From positions 1 to 64,000 of the forward strand of contig JAHOYV010000044.1 of NCBI GenBank assembly GCA_019038745.1: a stretch of DNA of 64,000 nucleotides, given 5' to 3'. The notes under the pieces are model-generated. The model ran no database searches. It was not told where the DNA came from and saw nothing but the letters and a program-made list of their open reading frames with translations. The translations under genes and the position numbers were made by a program. Origin of the DNA: Gemmatimonadales bacterium. GTDB lineage: Bacteria > Krumholzibacteriota > Krumholzibacteriia > LZORAL124-64-63. This document shows, in pieces, positions 4,994 to 57,807 of this stretch. Each line of letters begins with the position of its first letter. Position 1 is the first letter of the stretch.

Positions 4994-5348
4994 GGGGGCG
5001 ACCTGGCTTCGACGTGGTCGGGGGACCGTGGGCTGCATGCCGAGATTCCATCTATCTCGTTAATCGGTGGAAAAACCAATAAGTGACGAAAACAATTTCG
5101 CACTGGCTGCTTAAATCAAGCAGCCCGTCCCGAGGTCGGGGGGTCACCGAACTGATCTCAAGGGGCGCCGTTTTCGGTGAATAGTCCGTGCTCAGGTTCC
5201 TGGGGAACGGGCGAAATTTAAGTGGAACTAGCCGGCTTGGTGGCGCGCACCCTGGCCCCCTCTTCGGTTAAATAACAGGGAGCTAAGCATGTAGACGCTT
5301 GCGGAGTACCGGTTACGGACGCGGGTTCGATTCCCGCCGCCTCCACCA
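4994..5348 (+). ncRNA. ssrA: tmRNA (transfer-messenger RNA)
   Basis: The 5' end GGGGGCGACCTGGCTTCGACG pairs through its first seven bases with CGCCTCC near the 3' end, followed by A-CCA (5345-5348); the T-arm reads GGGTTCGATTCCC. The tag reading frame ends ...DENNFALAA with TAA at 5112-5114 inside the loop of a GGCTGC/GCAGCC hairpin, as in other tmRNAs. By alignment with the canonical ANDENYALAA tag the resume codon is ATA at 5079, giving ISDENNFALAA after the tRNA-borne Ala. It rescues ribosomes stalled on broken mRNA and tags the product for proteolysis. Confidence 0.97.
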
Positions 5349-50483: not shown

Positions 50484-51848
50484 ATGACAACGGAAGGATC
50501 CGCTTTGCCTCTTCGTATCAGTATATCCGGGATCAGGGGAGTCATCGGCGACGGCCTGGATGCCGTGACCGTCTCACGCTGGGCCTCCGCCTTGGGAGCT
50601 TGGCTGCCGGCAGGCCCGGTAGTTGTAGGTAGGGATTCACGTCCCAGCGGTCCGATGGTTTTCGACGCAGTTGCAGCCGCCCTGGTTTCGACGGGTCATG
50701 AAGTGAGGAACATCGGCATCGCCACGACTCCAACTGTAGAAGTTGCCGTCCAGCAGAGCAACGCTGTCGGGGGCGTGATCATCACAGCCAGTCACAATCC
50801 CCAGCAATGGAACGCCCTCAAGTTTCTGAAGGGTGACGGTCTGTTCCTGAACGCCGAGGAGAATCGGCAAGTGCGGATTCGTTACGAGGACGGTAGTGGC
50901 CACGTGGCCTGGGATGGTCTGGGGTCGGTAGTGGATACGCCCGGGGCCGATGATCTTCACTTGCAATCGATCGAATCCTCACCGTGGTTGGATTCAGACC
51001 TTACCCGTAGCCTGGGATTGCACGCGGTGGTTGATGCGGTCGAGGGTGCCGGCGGCGATATCGTGCCGCGACTCCTGGCCGAGTTGGGGGTAAGATGCAC
51101 TCCGCTTTATTGTAATTTGTCTGGCAATTTTCCCCACGACCCGGAACCTACGCCTGCCCATCTGGAGGATTTGCGTCGGGTGGTGGTCGAACAAGGGGCT
51201 GATTTGGGTTTTGCAGTGGATCCGGACGTGGACCGTTTGGCCCTGGTAGACGGATCAGGTCGGGCTTTGAGTGAAGAAATGACTCTTGTTCTGGCGATGG
51301 ATTTTCTGCTGGGCAAGACGCCGGGATCAGTGGCGGTGAACCTTTCGACCACGGGCTTGATCGAGACGGTAGCCGCCAAGCACGGGTGCAAGGTTTTCCG
51401 GACGCCGGTGGGTGAGGCCAACGTGGTGGAGACCATCCTGGAGCAGGAGTGCATCATGGGTGGCGAGGGCAATGGTGGGGTCATCTATCCGACCCTGCAC
51501 GCGGGGCGGGACGCCCTGGTAGGGATCGCCATGATCCTGCAGCTGGTGGCCGAGAGTGGAAAAAGTCTGGCCGAATTGGCCGACTCGTTTCCTCCGGTGG
51601 CCATGGTCAAGACGAAATTTCCGGCCGAGGATCTGCCCGTCGGGGCGGCTCTGGTCGAAGCGCTGAATGCCTTGGGGGAGGGTGAACTGGATCAGCGGGA
51701 CGGCGTCAAGTGGACCGGGCCGGGAGCCTGGGTTCACGTGCGACCTTCAAATACCGAACCGGTGGTGAGGATCATCGCCGAAGCCGAGAACGAGGATGCT
51801 GCCTGGCGGCTCATTCGCCGGGTTCATCCAGGGCAACAGGAGGGCTAA
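50484..51848 (+). CDS. glmM: Phosphoglucosamine mutase-type phosphohexomutase
   Basis: A 454-residue alpha-D-phosphohexomutase expected to convert glucosamine-6-phosphate to glucosamine-1-phosphate for UDP-GlcNAc. The phosphoserine loop is TASHNP (S about 103), the Mg site DPDVDRLAL, the sugar loop GEGNGGVIYP and the phosphate loop RPSNTEPVVRI. N-terminal SGIRGVIG is typical. Phosphomannomutase is the alternative, but immediate linkage to glmS favours GlmM. It begins after a short AT-rich gap following the tRNAs and is followed after four bases by glmS. Confidence 0.9.
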   Translation: MTTEGSALPLRISISGIRGVIGDGLDAVTVSRWASALGAWLPAGPVVVGRDSRPSGPMVFDAVAAALVSTGHEVRNIGIATTPTVEVAVQQSNAVGGVIITASHNPQQWNALKFLKGDGLFLNAEENRQVRIRYEDGSGHVAWDGLGSVVDTPGADDLHLQSIESSPWLDSDLTRSLGLHAVVDAVEGAGGDIVPRLLAELGVRCTPLYCNLSGNFPHDPEPTPAHLEDLRRVVVEQGADLGFAVDPDVDRLALVDGSGRALSEEMTLVLAMDFLLGKTPGSVAVNLSTTGLIETVAAKHGCKVFRTPVGEANVVETILEQECIMGGEGNGGVIYPTLHAGRDALVGIAMILQLVAESGKSLAELADSFPPVAMVKTKFPAEDLPVGAALVEALNALGEGELDQRDGVKWTGPGAWVHVRPSNTEPVVRIIAEAENEDAAWRLIRRVHPGQQEG

Positions 51849-51852
51849 TTAC

Positions 51853-53673
51853 ATGTGTGGAATCGTTGGTGTTACCGGAACCAGGGAAGCGGCCAAGGTC
51901 CTGATCGAAGGACTGAAGCGTTTGGAATATCGCGGCTATGACAGCGCGGGGGTCGCCATCGTGAATGCCGAGGGGCAGGTGGTGGTCAAGGAGAAGGGAA
52001 AAATCAGCAATCTGGAAGCTGATCTCAACTGGTCCCAGTTGGAAGGTGACTGCGGAATTGCCCATACACGATGGGCTACGCACGGAGCTCCCAACAAGGT
52101 GAACGCCCACCCCCACGTGTCCGGAGATCTGGCCGTTGTACACAATGGGATCATCGAAAACTTCGGTGCCCTGAAGGTGCAGCTGGCCAAGAAGGGCCAC
52201 GTTTTTACTTCCGACACCGATTCCGAAGTTCTGACCCACCTGATCGACGACTTCTATGATGGAGACCTGGTTGAGGCCGTTCAGCTTGCCCTCGGGGTTG
52301 TACATGGAGCCTACGGGATCGCCGTAACCCACAAGGATTTCCCCGAAATGATTGTCGGGGCCCGCAAAGGCAGCCCGCTGGTTGTCGGTATCGGCGACGG
52401 CGTGAATTATCTGGCCAGCGATGTGGCCGCCATCATGGGACACACTCGCCAGGTAATGTACCTCGACGATGGAGAGATGGTGACGCTGACTCCGCAGGGC
52501 GTTACTACGACCACCATCACCAACGAGGACATCATCAAGGAGATCCAGGAAATCACCTGGGACCTGGGACAGATCCAAAAGGGCGGCTATGAGCACTTCA
52601 TGCTCAAGGAGATATTCGAACAGCCCCAGACTATTCGCGACTCCTTCCGCGGGCGTATCCTGGCCGAGAGTGGGGATGTCAAGCTGGGCGGTATTCAGCT
52701 GACGGATTGGGAACTGCGTAATATCCGTCGCATCATAATTCTTGCCTGCGGCACTTCCTGGCACGCCGGTCTGGTGGGTGAGTACCTGCTGGAGGAGTAT
52801 GCCCACATCCCGGTGGAGGTGGAGTACGCCAGCGAGTTCCGCTACCGCTCCCCGATCATAGAGCCGGGCACGTTGTGTCTGGTGATCAGCCAGAGCGGGG
52901 AGACCATCGATACGCTGGAGGCCATGCGCGAGGCCAAGCGCAAGGGCGCCAAAATCCTGGGCATTACAAATGTCGTGGGATCGACGATAGCTCGTGAGAG
53001 CGAGGGCGGGATCTACATCCACGCCGGGCCCGAGATCGGCGTCGCCTCGACCAAGGCTTTCACCAGTCAGGTCACCATTCTCGGTCTGCTGACCATTCTG
53101 CTCGGACGCCGGACTCGTCTCAACGCCGACCGGGGCAAGCAGATGCTCCAGGAATTGGAACGGGTTCCGGATTTGGTCCAGATGGTTCTGGACCACTCAG
53201 ATGCCATCCAGGAGATTGCCCAGGTCTATGCCAAGCACACGAACTGTTTGTATCTGGGGCGCGGTCTGAACTTTCCCATCGCCCTGGAAGGCGCCCTGAA
53301 GTTGAAGGAGATCAGCTACATTCACGCTGAGGGATATCCCGCAGCGGAAATGAAGCATGGGCCCATTGCCCTGATCGATCCGGACATGCCGGTCGTGGTT
53401 CTGGCAATCAAGGACGGCAGTTACGATAAGATAGTCGGCAACGTACAGGAAGTGCGGGCTCGTGACGGCAAGATCATCAGTATCGTCACAGAAGGGGATA
53501 CCGAGATCGCTGCTCTCAGCGACCACGTGATCACGATCCCGGACACAATGAACTTCTGGACCCCCTTGCTGTCGGTGATTCCGCTGCAGCTGCTTGCCTA
53601 TCACATCGCGGTCCTGCGGGGTGAAGATGTTGACCAGCCACGGAATTTGGCCAAGGCCGTGACTGTCGAGTAA
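51853..53673 (+). CDS. glmS: Glutamine-fructose-6-phosphate aminotransferase (isomerizing)
   Basis: A 606-residue enzyme that makes glucosamine-6-phosphate from fructose-6-phosphate and glutamine, the first step of amino-sugar synthesis. Catalytic Cys2 follows the initiator Met (MCGIVGVTGT). The glutaminase domain includes AHTRWATHGAP and HNGIIEN. The two SIS domains include the sugar-binding CGTSWHAG, ISQSGETIDTL and the C-terminal KAVTVE. ATG 51853 lies after CAGGAGGG. No glmS ribozyme is seen: the gap to glmM is only four bases. Confidence 0.97.
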   Translation: MCGIVGVTGTREAAKVLIEGLKRLEYRGYDSAGVAIVNAEGQVVVKEKGKISNLEADLNWSQLEGDCGIAHTRWATHGAPNKVNAHPHVSGDLAVVHNGIIENFGALKVQLAKKGHVFTSDTDSEVLTHLIDDFYDGDLVEAVQLALGVVHGAYGIAVTHKDFPEMIVGARKGSPLVVGIGDGVNYLASDVAAIMGHTRQVMYLDDGEMVTLTPQGVTTTTITNEDIIKEIQEITWDLGQIQKGGYEHFMLKEIFEQPQTIRDSFRGRILAESGDVKLGGIQLTDWELRNIRRIIILACGTSWHAGLVGEYLLEEYAHIPVEVEYASEFRYRSPIIEPGTLCLVISQSGETIDTLEAMREAKRKGAKILGITNVVGSTIARESEGGIYIHAGPEIGVASTKAFTSQVTILGLLTILLGRRTRLNADRGKQMLQELERVPDLVQMVLDHSDAIQEIAQVYAKHTNCLYLGRGLNFPIALEGALKLKEISYIHAEGYPAAEMKHGPIALIDPDMPVVVLAIKDGSYDKIVGNVQEVRARDGKIISIVTEGDTEIAALSDHVITIPDTMNFWTPLLSVIPLQLLAYHIAVLRGEDVDQPRNLAKAVTVE

Positions 53674-53741: not shown

Positions 53742-54131
53742 GTGACCCGTAAGATCATACAGACCGATAACGCTCCAGCTGCCATCGGTCCCTACAGTCA
53801 AGCCAACGCCAATGGTGGGTTCCTCTTTACGGCAGGACAAATTCCACTGGACCCCGTTACAATGGAGGTCGTGGGGGAGACCGCTCCCGAGCAGGCTCGC
53901 CAAGCGCTGGTGAATGCCCGGGAGGTCGTGAAGGCTGGTGGATTGACCCTGGATGACGTGGTGAAGGTAACGGTTTTCATCCTGGATATGGGACAGTTCG
54001 CCGCGATCAACGAGGTCTACCAGGAGTTCTTTGGTGAAAGGCCGCCGGCCCGTTCGGTGGTCGAGGTTTCCCGTCTGCCCAAAGATGTGCTGGTGGAGAT
54101 TGAGATGGTTGCTTATGGTGAAAGTAATTGA
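53742..54131 (+). CDS. ridA: RidA/YjgF-family enamine/imine deaminase
   Basis: A 129-residue trimeric enzyme that hydrolyses reactive 2-aminoacrylate/imine intermediates. Conserved segments: AIGPYSQANANGG, FTAGQIPLDP, ARQALVNAREVVKAGG, VVKVTVFILDM, and PARSVVEVSRLPKDVLVEIEMVA with the active Arg in PARS and terminal Glu. GTG start behind AAGGAGAGAAAC. It lies 53 bases before tRNA-Sec. Confidence 0.94.
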   Translation: MTRKIIQTDNAPAAIGPYSQANANGGFLFTAGQIPLDPVTMEVVGETAPEQARQALVNAREVVKAGGLTLDDVVKVTVFILDMGQFAAINEVYQEFFGERPPARSVVEVSRLPKDVLVEIEMVAYGESN

Positions 54132-54183: not shown

Positions 54184-54281
54184 GGGAATGAGTGTGGTCT
54201 GGTGACTGCCGGGGACTTCAAATCCTTATGTCGGGCGCGTAAACCGTCCGAGGTGGGTTCGATTCCCACACATTCCCGCCA
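54184..54281 (+). tRNA. selC: tRNA-Sec (selenocysteine, anticodon TCA)
   Basis: A 98-base tRNA with every diagnostic feature of bacterial tRNA-Sec. Acceptor GGGAATG (54184-54190) pairs with CATTCCC (54271-54277), then G-CCA; the eighth pair of a Sec-type 8+5 stem is an A-A mismatch. The D-stem is six pairs (GTGGTC/GACTGC) with a TGGT loop. The anticodon loop is CTTCAAA with TCA at 54218-54220. A long variable arm has seven pairs (TCGGGCG/CGTCCGA), and the T-arm is GTGGGTTCGATTCCCAC. It decodes UGA at SECIS-bearing mRNAs with SelA, SelB and SelD. Confidence 0.93.
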
Positions 54282-54293
54282 TCTTTGTCTGCC

Positions 54294-55199
54294 ATGATCC
54301 ATATCACCGTCATCGCCAACCCTTTTGCTGGAGCGGCCCGGGGTAGGCTTTCCGGCGCCCAGGCTGTTGCCTTGCTGACAAAGCGAGGATTCCAGGTCGA
54401 ACTGTGCTTGACCAAGGGGGTCGGCCACGCGTCTTCCCTGGCGGCCGAAGTTGCAGCTACAGCCGGCGATCAAGGCATGGTGGTCGTCGTCGGTGGGGAC
54501 GGCACTATTCATGAGGTCGCCCAGGTACTGGCCGGAACCAGTTGTCCACTGGGGGTGTTGCCCTCCGGCAGCGGTAACGATTTTGCCGTCGGTATCGGCT
54601 GTCCTACGGTTCAGGCCGGTCTGGACGCCATCACCGACGGCAGGGAACAGGAAATTGACGTCTGTGCCCTTGACGGAAGACCCTTCGTCAATTCGATGGG
54701 GCTTTTGGCCAGTGGAGCAATTTCCGGTACTGCGTCAGGGTTTTGGCGTTGGCTGGGTAGTGGGCGGTATGTAGTCGCGTCCCTGTTGACGATTCTGACC
54801 TACCGGGGACAGGATGTGGATTGGGTTATCTCCGGTTCGTCTCTCGACGTTTCGCAGGAACGGTTGAGCGGGGAATTCCTGTTGGCCGAATTCTGTAACG
54901 GGCCTCTAACCGGTGGGGGGTTCCGGTTGGGCGATAACGTCGATTTGGCCGACGGCCTGCTGGACCTCTGCCTGGTCCGACCGATCGGCCTGGTGGCTGG
55001 GTTGGGAATCCTTCCCGGCGCTGCGGCCGGCAGGATGATAGAGCACCCTGCGTTTTCCCGATTCAAAAGTCGGCGTGTCGGGTTCAAAACCGAAAAGCCC
55101 GTGCCCTACCACCTTGACGGTGAGCCGGGGATTCTCGAGGCCGGATCACATCGGGTCGAAGTGTTGGAGAAAAAGCTGAAGGTGATGGTGCCTGCGTGA
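54294..55199 (+). CDS. Diacylglycerol kinase-type lipid kinase (DagK/YegS family)
   Basis: A 301-residue cytoplasmic lipid kinase. The ATP-binding loop GGDGTIHEV and the segment LGVLPSGSGNDFA are typical of the DAGK catalytic domain, with NPFAGAARG at the N terminus and HLDGEPG near the end. It would phosphorylate diacylglycerol or a related lipid. The ATG lies 13 bases after tRNA-Sec. It overlaps the DUF5683-like gene by four bases. Confidence 0.9.
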   Translation: MIHITVIANPFAGAARGRLSGAQAVALLTKRGFQVELCLTKGVGHASSLAAEVAATAGDQGMVVVVGGDGTIHEVAQVLAGTSCPLGVLPSGSGNDFAVGIGCPTVQAGLDAITDGREQEIDVCALDGRPFVNSMGLLASGAISGTASGFWRWLGSGRYVVASLLTILTYRGQDVDWVISGSSLDVSQERLSGEFLLAEFCNGPLTGGGFRLGDNVDLADGLLDLCLVRPIGLVAGLGILPGAAAGRMIEHPAFSRFKSRRVGFKTEKPVPYHLDGEPGILEAGSHRVEVLEKKLKVMVPA

Positions 55200-55840
55200 G
55201 TCAAATGCTCAGTACTGTGTTGCCCATCATGGTCCTGTCCCTTTTGCTGGGCTGGTCGGGATCCGCCACGGCTCAAGCAGAGGCTGAATCTGCTGCGGAT
55301 GTCCCGGTAGAGGGCATCTTTTCAGCAACACCGGATTCCGTAGTCGGGCCGGTACCTGCCTTGCTGGCGGCGGAGGAGGTGGACCTGTGGTCGACCGGGG
55401 TCAGCCCCGCCGGAGCGGTCCTGATGTCCCCAATTTTCCCGGGTTGGGGTCAACTATACTCGGAGAATGGCTGGCGGGGGGCCCTGGCCTTCGGTTCCCA
55501 GATGTGGTTCTGGTCGCGATTGGTGACCCGAGACCAGCGGGCCGTCAGGGCTAGGAATTTTGCCGAAACTTTTGCTGCGGGCGACGCCAACCGTACCCTG
55601 TACAACCAGATTGCGGAGGAGAACTGGGAGCAGATGCGGGACTATGCCTGGTGGTCAGCTGGTGCCATGTTCATCATTTCCCTGGATGCCTACGTGGGCT
55701 CCCACCTGTTTAACTTCGATGAGGATCCGGTGCCGGTTCCGAACCGCTATGAGGATATTTTTGATCAGCCGGGAGGTAGCATGCCCGGGTCGGTTGAGGT
55801 TTACTCCATTGTGGTCATGCAGTGGCAGTACCGGTTTTGA
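55196..55840 (+). CDS. DUF5683-like exported membrane protein
   Basis: A 214-residue protein starting GTG in a GTGA overlap with the kinase stop. Signal helix (MLSTVLPIMVLSLLLGWSGSATA), a Glu/Ala-rich linker, then the conserved SPIFPGWGQLYSENGWRGALAF, RDYAWWSAGAMFIISLDAYVGSHLFNFD and a final strand (VMQWQYRF) that may be an outer-membrane anchor. DUF5683 is common in the FCB group and has no known role. Confidence 0.8.
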   Translation: MSQMLSTVLPIMVLSLLLGWSGSATAQAEAESAADVPVEGIFSATPDSVVGPVPALLAAEEVDLWSTGVSPAGAVLMSPIFPGWGQLYSENGWRGALAFGSQMWFWSRLVTRDQRAVRARNFAETFAAGDANRTLYNQIAEENWEQMRDYAWWSAGAMFIISLDAYVGSHLFNFDEDPVPVPNRYEDIFDQPGGSMPGSVEVYSIVVMQWQYRF

Positions 55841-56001: not shown

Positions 56002-57807
56002 ATGTCTTTTAACAGGGAATACACCCGCAACTTCTGCATTATTGCCCATATCGACCACGGGAAGAGTACCCTGGCCGATCGCCTTCTCGAAGTAACAGGG
56101 ACCCTCAAAGGCAAGGAATTGCAAGAGCAGGTCCTGGATTCCATGGATTTGGAACGGGAACGCGGAATCACCATCAAAAGTCACCCCATCCGCATGGACT
56201 ACCGTGACCAAGAGGGCAAGGCCTGGGTCCTGAACCTGATCGATACGCCGGGTCACGTGGATTTCCATTACGAAGTTAGCCGCAGCCTGGCCGCTTGCGA
56301 AGGCGCACTGCTGGTTGTGGATGCCGTGCAGGGTGTGCAGGCCCAGACCATCAACAACATGTACCTCGCCATTGAACACGATCTGGCCATTGTGCCGGTG
56401 ATCAACAAAATCGACCTGCCCGCCGCGCGGCCCGAGTACGTGCAGGAACAGTTCATCGATCTGCTGGGTTGCGATCCCGACGAGATTCACATGGTCAGCG
56501 CCAAAACAGGCGAAGGAATTCCCCAACTCCTTGAGGCCATCATCGCCGAAGTACCGGCGCCCGTCGGGGACCCGTCCACCCAGGCCAAAGCCTTGATTTT
56601 CGACTCCATCTTTGATCCCTACGTCGGGGCGGTGGCCTATGTGCGCATGTTCGGGGGCATGATCCGCAAGGGCCAAAAGATAAAATTGATGAGTAACGAT
56701 TTACAGTTCGAAGTGGGAGACCTGGGCTGGTTTCGTCTCGATCGGATCGGGCAAAAATCCCTTGAGGCCGGAGAAGTGGGGTACATCGCCACCGGGGCCA
56801 AGGATGTGCGTCATATCCGGGTAGGCGACACCATCACGTTGGCGGAGGATCCCTGTGCCGAGCCATGGCCGGGATATGCCGAGGCCAAACCGATGGTATT
56901 TTCCGGGCTATACCCCACGGACAACGATCAATACGATGATCTGCTGGAGGCTCTGCAGAAGCTTCAGATGAACGATGCTTCGCTCAGTTGGGAGAAAGAG
57001 AGCAGCGCCGCCCTGGGCTTCGGTTTCCGCTGTGGATTCCTGGGTTTACTGCACCTGGAGATCATTCAGGAACGGTTGGAACGCGAATACAACCTGAACC
57101 TGATCGCTACCCTGCCCAACGTGGAGTACGAAGTCCTGCTGAGAGACGGGTCGGTAGAGCGTTGCGAGAATCCGGCTCTGCTGCCCGACGCCAAGGACAT
57201 TCAGGAGATTCGAGAGCCCATCGTTCACGCCTCGGTGATTACACCCAAGGAATTTGTCGGTCCTGTGATCCAGATTTCCCTGGATCGCCGAGGTGTACAG
57301 ACCAAGATGGAGTACCTCGATACCGAACGGGTGAACATCGACTTCGATCTTCCCCTGAACGAGCTTGTGGTCGACTATTACGACAAACTGAAATCGGTGA
57401 CCAAGGGATATGCCTCCCTGGACTACGAATACCGGCGGCACCGAGCAGATGATCTGGTGCGGTTGGATATTGTTCTCAACGGGGACCTGGTCGACGCCTT
57501 GACCTGTATTGTACATCGGGAAAACGCCTACAGCTGGGGCCTGAAGCTCTGTCAGAAGCTAAAGGAACTGATTCCCCGCCAGATGTTCGCCGTGGCCATC
57601 CAGGCCGCCGTGGGCTCGCGGGTCCTGGCCCGGACAAGCGTCAGGCCCTTCCGGAAGAATGTTACAGCCAAGTGTTACGGAGGCGATATCTCTCGCAAGA
57701 GAAAGCTTCTCGAGAAACAAAAAGAAGGCAAGAAACGCATGAAACAGGTCGGATCCGTGGAAATTCCACAAGATGCTTTCCTGGCCGTGCTGAAAGTCGA
57801 ACGCTGA
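56002..57807 (+). CDS. lepA: Elongation factor 4 (LepA)
   Basis: A 601-residue ribosome-associated GTPase that affects initiation and stress translation. G motifs [25 protein letters not shown] and NKIDLP are present, followed by domains II-V and the LepA-specific C-terminal domain ending KNVTAKCYGGDISRKRKLLEKQKEGKKRMKQ. The ATG is at 56002, behind GGAGCGTGCCTCGATAATC-type sequence. Its stop lies within a 14-base tandem duplication (57797-57824). Confidence 0.97.
   Translation: MSFNREYTRNFCIIAHIDHGKSTLADRLLEVTGTLKGKELQEQVLDSMDLERERGITIKSHPIRMDYRDQEGKAWVLNLIDTPGHVDFHYEVSRSLAACEGALLVVDAVQGVQAQTINNMYLAIEHDLAIVPVINKIDLPAARPEYVQEQFIDLLGCDPDEIHMVSAKTGEGIPQLLEAIIAEVPAPVGDPSTQAKALIFDSIFDPYVGAVAYVRMFGGMIRKGQKIKLMSNDLQFEVGDLGWFRLDRIGQKSLEAGEVGYIATGAKDVRHIRVGDTITLAEDPCAEPWPGYAEAKPMVFSGLYPTDNDQYDDLLEALQKLQMNDASLSWEKESSAALGFGFRCGFLGLLHLEIIQERLEREYNLNLIATLPNVEYEVLLRDGSVERCENPALLPDAKDIQEIREPIVHASVITPKEFVGPVIQISLDRRGVQTKMEYLDTERVNIDFDLPLNELVVDYYDKLKSVTKGYASLDYEYRRHRADDLVRLDIVLNGDLVDALTCIVHRENAYSWGLKLCQKLKELIPRQMFAVAIQAAVGSRVLARTSVRPFRKNVTAKCYGGDISRKRKLLEKQKEGKKRMKQVGSVEIPQDAFLAVLKVER

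What the first reader, a model, noticed from the sequence alone, without database searches (positions are those of the whole stretch)
54184..54281. A selenocysteine tRNA gene: the genome encodes selenoproteins
The 98-base gene has the TCA anticodon, six-pair D-stem, seven-pair variable arm and encoded CCA of bacterial tRNA-Sec. It implies selA, selB, selD and at least one selenoprotein elsewhere. It lies in a core-gene run (ridA to lipid kinase), not on a mobile element. The eighth acceptor pair is an A-A mismatch, which departs from the usual 8+5 stem.
Basis: partly seen in the sequence, partly recalled or inferred. Interest (0 to 1): 0.75.

Follow-up and report, generated by a model that had tools for sequence, protein, structure and literature searches.

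The report
Selenocysteine tRNA gene in a Krumholzibacteriota genome
This is an ordinary, working-looking gene for the transfer RNA that inserts selenocysteine, in an uncultured bacterium whose genome also carries the rest of the selenocysteine machinery and at least two selenoproteins; its one odd base pair is shared by its whole lineage and by many other bacteria.

Summary
Window 54184-54281 (+) is a bacterial tRNA-Sec: ARAGORN calls it, and Rfam RF01852 scores it 68.9 bits against a cut-off of 47. The same genome (91% complete) encodes selA, selB with its SECIS-binding winged-helix domains, and a selD with an in-frame TGA. It also encodes a SelW-like (Rdx family) selenoprotein, CxxU with U as TGA, followed by a hairpin showing compensatory base changes and an invariant loop G. 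All 15 Rdx genes found in 18 genomes carry exactly one TGA. The clade is Candidatus Krumholzibacteriia. The gene's place (glmS-ridA-tRNA-Sec-[lipid kinase]-DUF5683-lepA) is conserved across the class, so it is vertically inherited core sequence, not a mobile element. The A8.A mismatch is real but not peculiar to this gene. In all 38 distinct tRNA-Sec sequences of the class this position is purine.purine, never a standard pair, while the other acceptor and T-stem pairs are kept. The same mismatch occurs in many other phyla, whereas in a small sample not selected at this position, including E. coli-type selC, pair 8 is always standard. That split is the only mildly new point. Overall: a new member of a known kind.

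The parts
54184..54281 (+). tRNA-Sec (selC) gene, anticodon TCA, CCA encoded
   Evidence: ARAGORN; Rfam RF01852 68.9 bits
54184..54190 (+). acceptor stem 5' side, 7 standard pairs with 54271-54277
   Evidence: sequence; all 7 pairs kept in 38/38 distinct relatives, with changes at pairs 4-6
54191..54191 (+). A8, opposite A54270: non-standard eighth acceptor pair
   Evidence: sequence; purine.purine in 38/38 distinct class members
54194..54209 (+). D arm: 6 pairs, 4-nt loop TGGT
   Evidence: sequence; paired and covarying in relatives
54211..54227 (+). anticodon arm, loop CTTCAAA, anticodon TCA at 54218-54220
54231..54251 (+). long variable arm, 7-pair stem
   Evidence: sequence
54253..54269 (+). 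T arm, 5 pairs
   Evidence: sequence
54270..54270 (+). A opposite A8
   Evidence: sequence
54278..54281 (+). discriminator G73 and encoded CCA
   Evidence: sequence; GCCA in 38/38 distinct relatives
51796..53673 (+). flanking gene read as glmS (named from its sequence by knowledge of the family, not scanned against a library)
   Evidence: conserved upstream of tRNA-Sec in relatives
53742..54131 (+). ridA, gene immediately upstream of the tRNA
   Evidence: PF01042 136 bits; conserved position
54294..55199 (+). YegS/diacylglycerol-kinase-like lipid kinase, immediately downstream
   Evidence: PF00781 94.5 bits; conserved in the family, found in only some other class members
55196..55840 (+). DUF5683 protein, flanking gene
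   Evidence: PF18935 41.5 bits; conserved position
56002..57807 (+). lepA (EF4), flanking gene
   Evidence: PF06421 166.8 bits; conserved position

Best explanation
The gene encodes the selenocysteine tRNA of a Candidatus Krumholzibacteriia bacterium and works by the standard bacterial route. Seryl-tRNA synthetase charges it with serine. SelA converts Ser to Sec using selenophosphate from SelD. SelB delivers Sec-tRNA to UGA codons marked by a hairpin just downstream. Its targets include at least a SelW-like redox protein and SelD itself. The eighth acceptor position is a purine.purine apposition that is normal for this lineage and probably stacks inside a 13-layer acceptor/T helix. Shown here: the gene, its structure, the partner genes, the recoded UGAs and their conservation. 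Inferred: the charging, conversion and decoding steps, and the geometry of pair 8.
For: tRNA: ARAGORN, RF01852 68.9 bits against 47. Own genome: selB 331.7 bits, cut-off 242, with SelB-wing_2, SelB-wing_3 and beta-barrel domains; selA 457.1 bits, cut-off 267.9; selD 360.6 bits, cut-off 125, with one in-frame TGA, reading SAG-U-AAKLSP. SelW-like: PF10262 66.6 bits with one TGA in the own genome, and one TGA in all 15 copies found in 18 genomes, reading EYCRV-U-NYEPRAAGLA; 74.9 bits when TGA is read as Sec. Downstream hairpin: 3 of 6 pairs with double-sided changes, covariation 0.241 against 0.069 in shuffles, 0 of 500 as high, slid controls at most 0.075; loop G at column 26 invariant. Clade: RF01852 over cut-off in 52/58 genomes, SelB in 18/18, SelA in 16/18, SelD in 18/18. 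Synteny: at least one of the window's flanking genes lies beside the tRNA in 49 of 50 loci. No YbbB over cut-off in any of 18 genomes, so SelD is not explained by 2-selenouridine.
Against: Pair 8 is A.A, so the acceptor stem has 7 standard pairs, not 8, and stem length is the known SelB/EF-Tu discriminator in bacteria (PMC7609411). No expression, charging or protein data. The genome is a 91% complete draft. A single-sequence fold does not give the cloverleaf as its minimum.
Confidence: 0.97

Rival explanations
1. A degenerate or relic tRNA-Sec: the A.A mismatch marks loss of function.
For: Pair 8 is non-standard (sequence; marks it as a non-pair).
Against: All other acceptor and T-stem pairs are kept in 38/38 distinct class sequences; pair 8 is R.R in all of them. 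The full machinery and two UGA-containing genes are present.
Confidence: 0.01
2. A UGA-reading tRNA that is not for Sec (an allo-tRNA, selC*-type tRNA-Cys, or a serine suppressor).
For: Such opal tRNAs with unusual acceptor domains exist (PMC7609411).
Against: It matches RF01852 over its full length, has G73, a 6-pair D-stem with 4-nt loop and a 7-pair variable arm, and selA and selB are in the genome. Recoded UGAs sit at Sec positions of known selenoprotein families.
Confidence: 0.01
3. The gene is a tRNA-Sec as in the best explanation, but the purine.purine pair 8 is a functional identity element (tuning SelB, SelA or EF-Tu discrimination) in these lineages, not a neutral tolerance. This refines the best explanation and is not exclusive of it.
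For: 0/38 standard pairs at position 8 in the class although other acceptor pairs vary and stay paired. At least 71 R.R genes with otherwise complete 7+5 pairing in many phyla. The 11 distinct sequences of a sample not selected at pair 8 are all standard there.
Against: The non-selected sample came from viral-contig records and is narrow. No structure or binding data. Shared ancestry alone could hold the mismatch.
Confidence: 0.2

Closest known systems
Bacterial tRNA-Sec (selC; Rfam RF01852)
   Same: UCA anticodon, 6-pair D-stem with 4-nt loop, long variable arm, G73, encoded CCA, 8+5 layout of the acceptor and T arms, partners SelA/SelB/SelD in the genome.
   Different: The eighth acceptor position is A.A, not a standard pair.
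12-pair acceptor/T tRNA-Sec variants (Cloacimonetes 7+5; epsilonproteobacterial and other bulged types; PMC5330540)
   Same: Seven standard acceptor pairs and five T-stem pairs.
   Different: Those lack a nucleotide or carry a bulge; here both strands keep the eighth nucleotide, so the helix can still have 13 layers with one non-standard pair.
SelW-like (Rdx, PF10262) bacterial selenoproteins
   Same: CxxU motif, small single domain, UGA followed by a hairpin with a loop G; [quoted passage not shown]
   Different: Nothing notable.

Membership tests
Bacterial tRNA-Sec | Covariance score over the Rfam gathering cut-off | tested here: met
   68.9 bits against 47
Bacterial tRNA-Sec | UCA anticodon, G73, CCA end | tested here: met
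Bacterial tRNA-Sec | 6-pair D-stem with 4-nt loop and long variable arm | tested here: met
   sequence
Bacterial tRNA-Sec | 8+5 layout (13 positions) of acceptor and T arms | tested here: met
   8 acceptor and 5 T-stem positions on each strand; the eighth is A.A, a state shared by the whole class and by at least 71 genes elsewhere with otherwise complete pairing
Bacterial tRNA-Sec | SelA, SelB and SelD in the same genome | tested here: met
Bacterial tRNA-Sec | In-frame UGA with downstream SECIS hairpin in a selenoprotein gene | tested here: met
   SelW-like; SelD: (hairpin seen by eye, not tested by covariation)
Bacterial tRNA-Sec | Serylation, Ser-to-Sec conversion, SelB binding | not testable with these tools
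   needs biochemistry
12-pair (7+5) tRNA-Sec variants | Missing nucleotide or bulge in acceptor/linker | tested here: not met
   both nucleotides of position 8 are present

The most novel reading that the evidence does not exclude
Bacterial tRNA-Sec falls into two structural types, one with a standard, covarying eighth acceptor pair and one with a conserved purine.purine eighth pair, and the second type is matched to its own SelA/SelB recognition, so the eight-pair acceptor stem rule learned from E. coli is not general.
Probability: 0.15. Interest if true: 0.45.

Novelty: new member of a known kind. Interest (0 to 1): 0.2.

Why it matters
It shows that Krumholzibacteriota, an uncultured phylum, use selenocysteine as an old, vertically kept trait. 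Of the papers searched, only one mentions the group together with selenocysteine or selenoproteins (one mention of the group). Gene callers will tend to truncate its SelW-like and SelD proteins at TGA. The class-wide purine.purine pair 8 gives a simple, testable exception to the textbook eight-pair acceptor stem.

Tried and rejected
The first genome contigs pattern had a spacing error and found nothing (the error was shown); the mended pattern was checked on the window and loci, then loosened at two linker positions for the scan. Other selenoprotein families showed no Sec form in the own genome: FdhA/PF00384, Prx/PF00578, Fe-S_biosyn/PF01521, DsrE/PF02635, CMD/PF02627. 2-selenouridine synthase is not present over cut-off. 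A coding-potential scan for TGA-spanning frames over about 0.5 Mb of the genome recovered SelD and SelW among mostly antisense noise and gave no convincing new candidate by eye. E. coli genomes gave no blastn match to this tRNA, but E. coli-type selC turned up.

Full report
Check of the observation. ARAGORN finds tRNA-SeC(tca) at 54184-54281 on the + strand, and the Rfam tRNA-Sec model matches it over its full length at 68.9 bits against a gathering score of 47. Read by hand the gene has GGGAATG/CATTCCC (7 pairs), A8 opposite A (54191/54270), linker GT, a six-pair D-stem with loop TGGT, a five-pair anticodon stem with loop CTTCAAA, a seven-pair variable arm, a five-pair T-stem, G73 and CCA. 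The free-energy fold alone is only mildly better than shuffles and its minimum is not the cloverleaf (z -2.0); the covariance model and conservation carry the weight.

Partners in the same genome. The genome is a 3.58 Mb draft, 91% complete. It holds selB (331.7 bits) with the SelB beta-barrel and the SelB winged-helix domains 2 and 3, selA (457.1 bits) and selD (360.6 bits, one in-frame TGA). They lie on three contigs other than the tRNA's, so the genes are scattered. In 18 genomes (own and relatives), SelB is over cut-off in 18, SelA in 16 and SelD in 18; tRNA-Sec is over cut-off in 52 of 58 genomes. 2-Selenouridine synthase is over cut-off in none of 18, so selD there serves Sec or an untested selenium use.

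Selenoproteins. SelD reads ...TRFAKSAG-U-AAKLSPGDL... across the TGA, and this is conserved in the family. A SelW-like Rdx-family gene (G000 C2:145138-145347) reads MNITIEYCRV-U-NYEPRAAGLA...; all 15 Rdx genes found in 18 genomes have exactly one in-frame TGA, and in the 13 that were read out it sits in the same CxxU motif. With TGA read as Sec the own protein scores 74.9 bits against a cut-off of 22.6. On 13 sequences the 48 nt from the TGA align without gaps and form a hairpin in columns 19-24/30-35: three of six pairs change on both sides, the covariation score is 0.241 against a shuffled mean of 0.069 (0 of 500 as high), and the slid controls reach at most 0.075. The loop carries an invariant G at column 26, about 23 nt below the UGA. 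This is what a bacterial SECIS element should look like. A hairpin of the same kind can be seen below the selD TGA (AGTCC-GGG-GGACT), but I did not test it by covariation. Relatives also have a TGA-containing molybdopterin-oxidoreductase gene (G006) and CMD/AhpD-like genes with TGA (G005, G038, G039); the own genome has no such form of these.

Clade and position. This is a match of lengths and positions for relatives of the same family or class, not a taxonomic test of the window itself. In 49 of 50 loci at least one of glmS, ridA, the lipid kinase, DUF5683 and lepA lies beside the tRNA in the same arrangement, with the kinase found in only part of the class; short loci show only the nearest gene. 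A named Eisenbacteria contig (L096) has glmS, ridA, tRNA-Sec, lepA too. So this is an old, vertically inherited position.

The A.A mismatch. Among 51 tRNA-Sec genes (38 distinct) of the class, acceptor pairs 1-7 and all T-stem pairs are standard in every sequence, with changes at pairs 4-6, while position 8 is never standard: A.A 15, G.A 22, G.G 1. Others in that list, such as the Nitrospirota set, have only 3-4 pairs in this register and are probably other acceptor types wrongly framed by the pattern. A second scan that left position 8 free, in viral-contig records, found 20 genes (11 distinct), E. coli-type selC among them, all with a standard pair 8 (A-T, C-G, T-A). So the mismatch is a lineage-level state, not a flaw. 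The papers read describe the 8+5 rule, 12-pair variants and a functional non-Watson-Crick pair 5a:67b in eukaryotic tRNA-Sec (PMC5330540, PMC7609411); I found no description of the bacterial R.R pair 8 in the passages read, but the crystal-structure paper on bacterial tRNA-Sec was not held, so I do not claim it is unreported.

Verdict. The finding is sound and ordinary: about a fifth of sequenced bacteria use Sec (1121 genomes, 21.5%; PMC5029168). The value lies in adding Krumholzibacteriota with the whole pathway and targets, and in the class-wide pair-8 state, whose meaning is open.

Noticed in passing
window 4994-5348 (+): tmRNA gene with tag peptide DENNFALAA, RF00023 184.8 bits.
   Followed up: no
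L053:1390-2442 (-), own selD: SelD active site reads G-U-AAK: the second residue after U, which is Cys in the usual U/C-x-C-K motif, is Ala throughout the family (Ser or Cys in some other class members).
   Followed up: partly
G006:C152:21229-22824; G005:C202, G038:C30, G039:C1: Relatives carry a TGA-containing molybdopterin-oxidoreductase gene and CMD/AhpD-like genes with TGA that the own genome lacks in that form.
   Followed up: no
G020:C98:30-123 and G020:C562:9352-9445: One relative shows two tRNA-Sec copies of identical sequence near contig ends, perhaps an assembly duplicate.
   Followed up: no
L109, L116, L135, L153 and similar (Nitrospirota): tRNA-Sec genes beginning GGAGTG or GGAGCG, with only 3-4 of 7 acceptor pairs in the 8+5 register, apparently a different (shifted or 12-pair) acceptor type.
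   Followed up: no
G010 (reported 100% complete): Has SelA, SelB, SelD and a TGA-containing SelW-like gene but no tRNA-Sec over cut-off in its draft assembly, probably lost in a contig gap.
   Followed up: no
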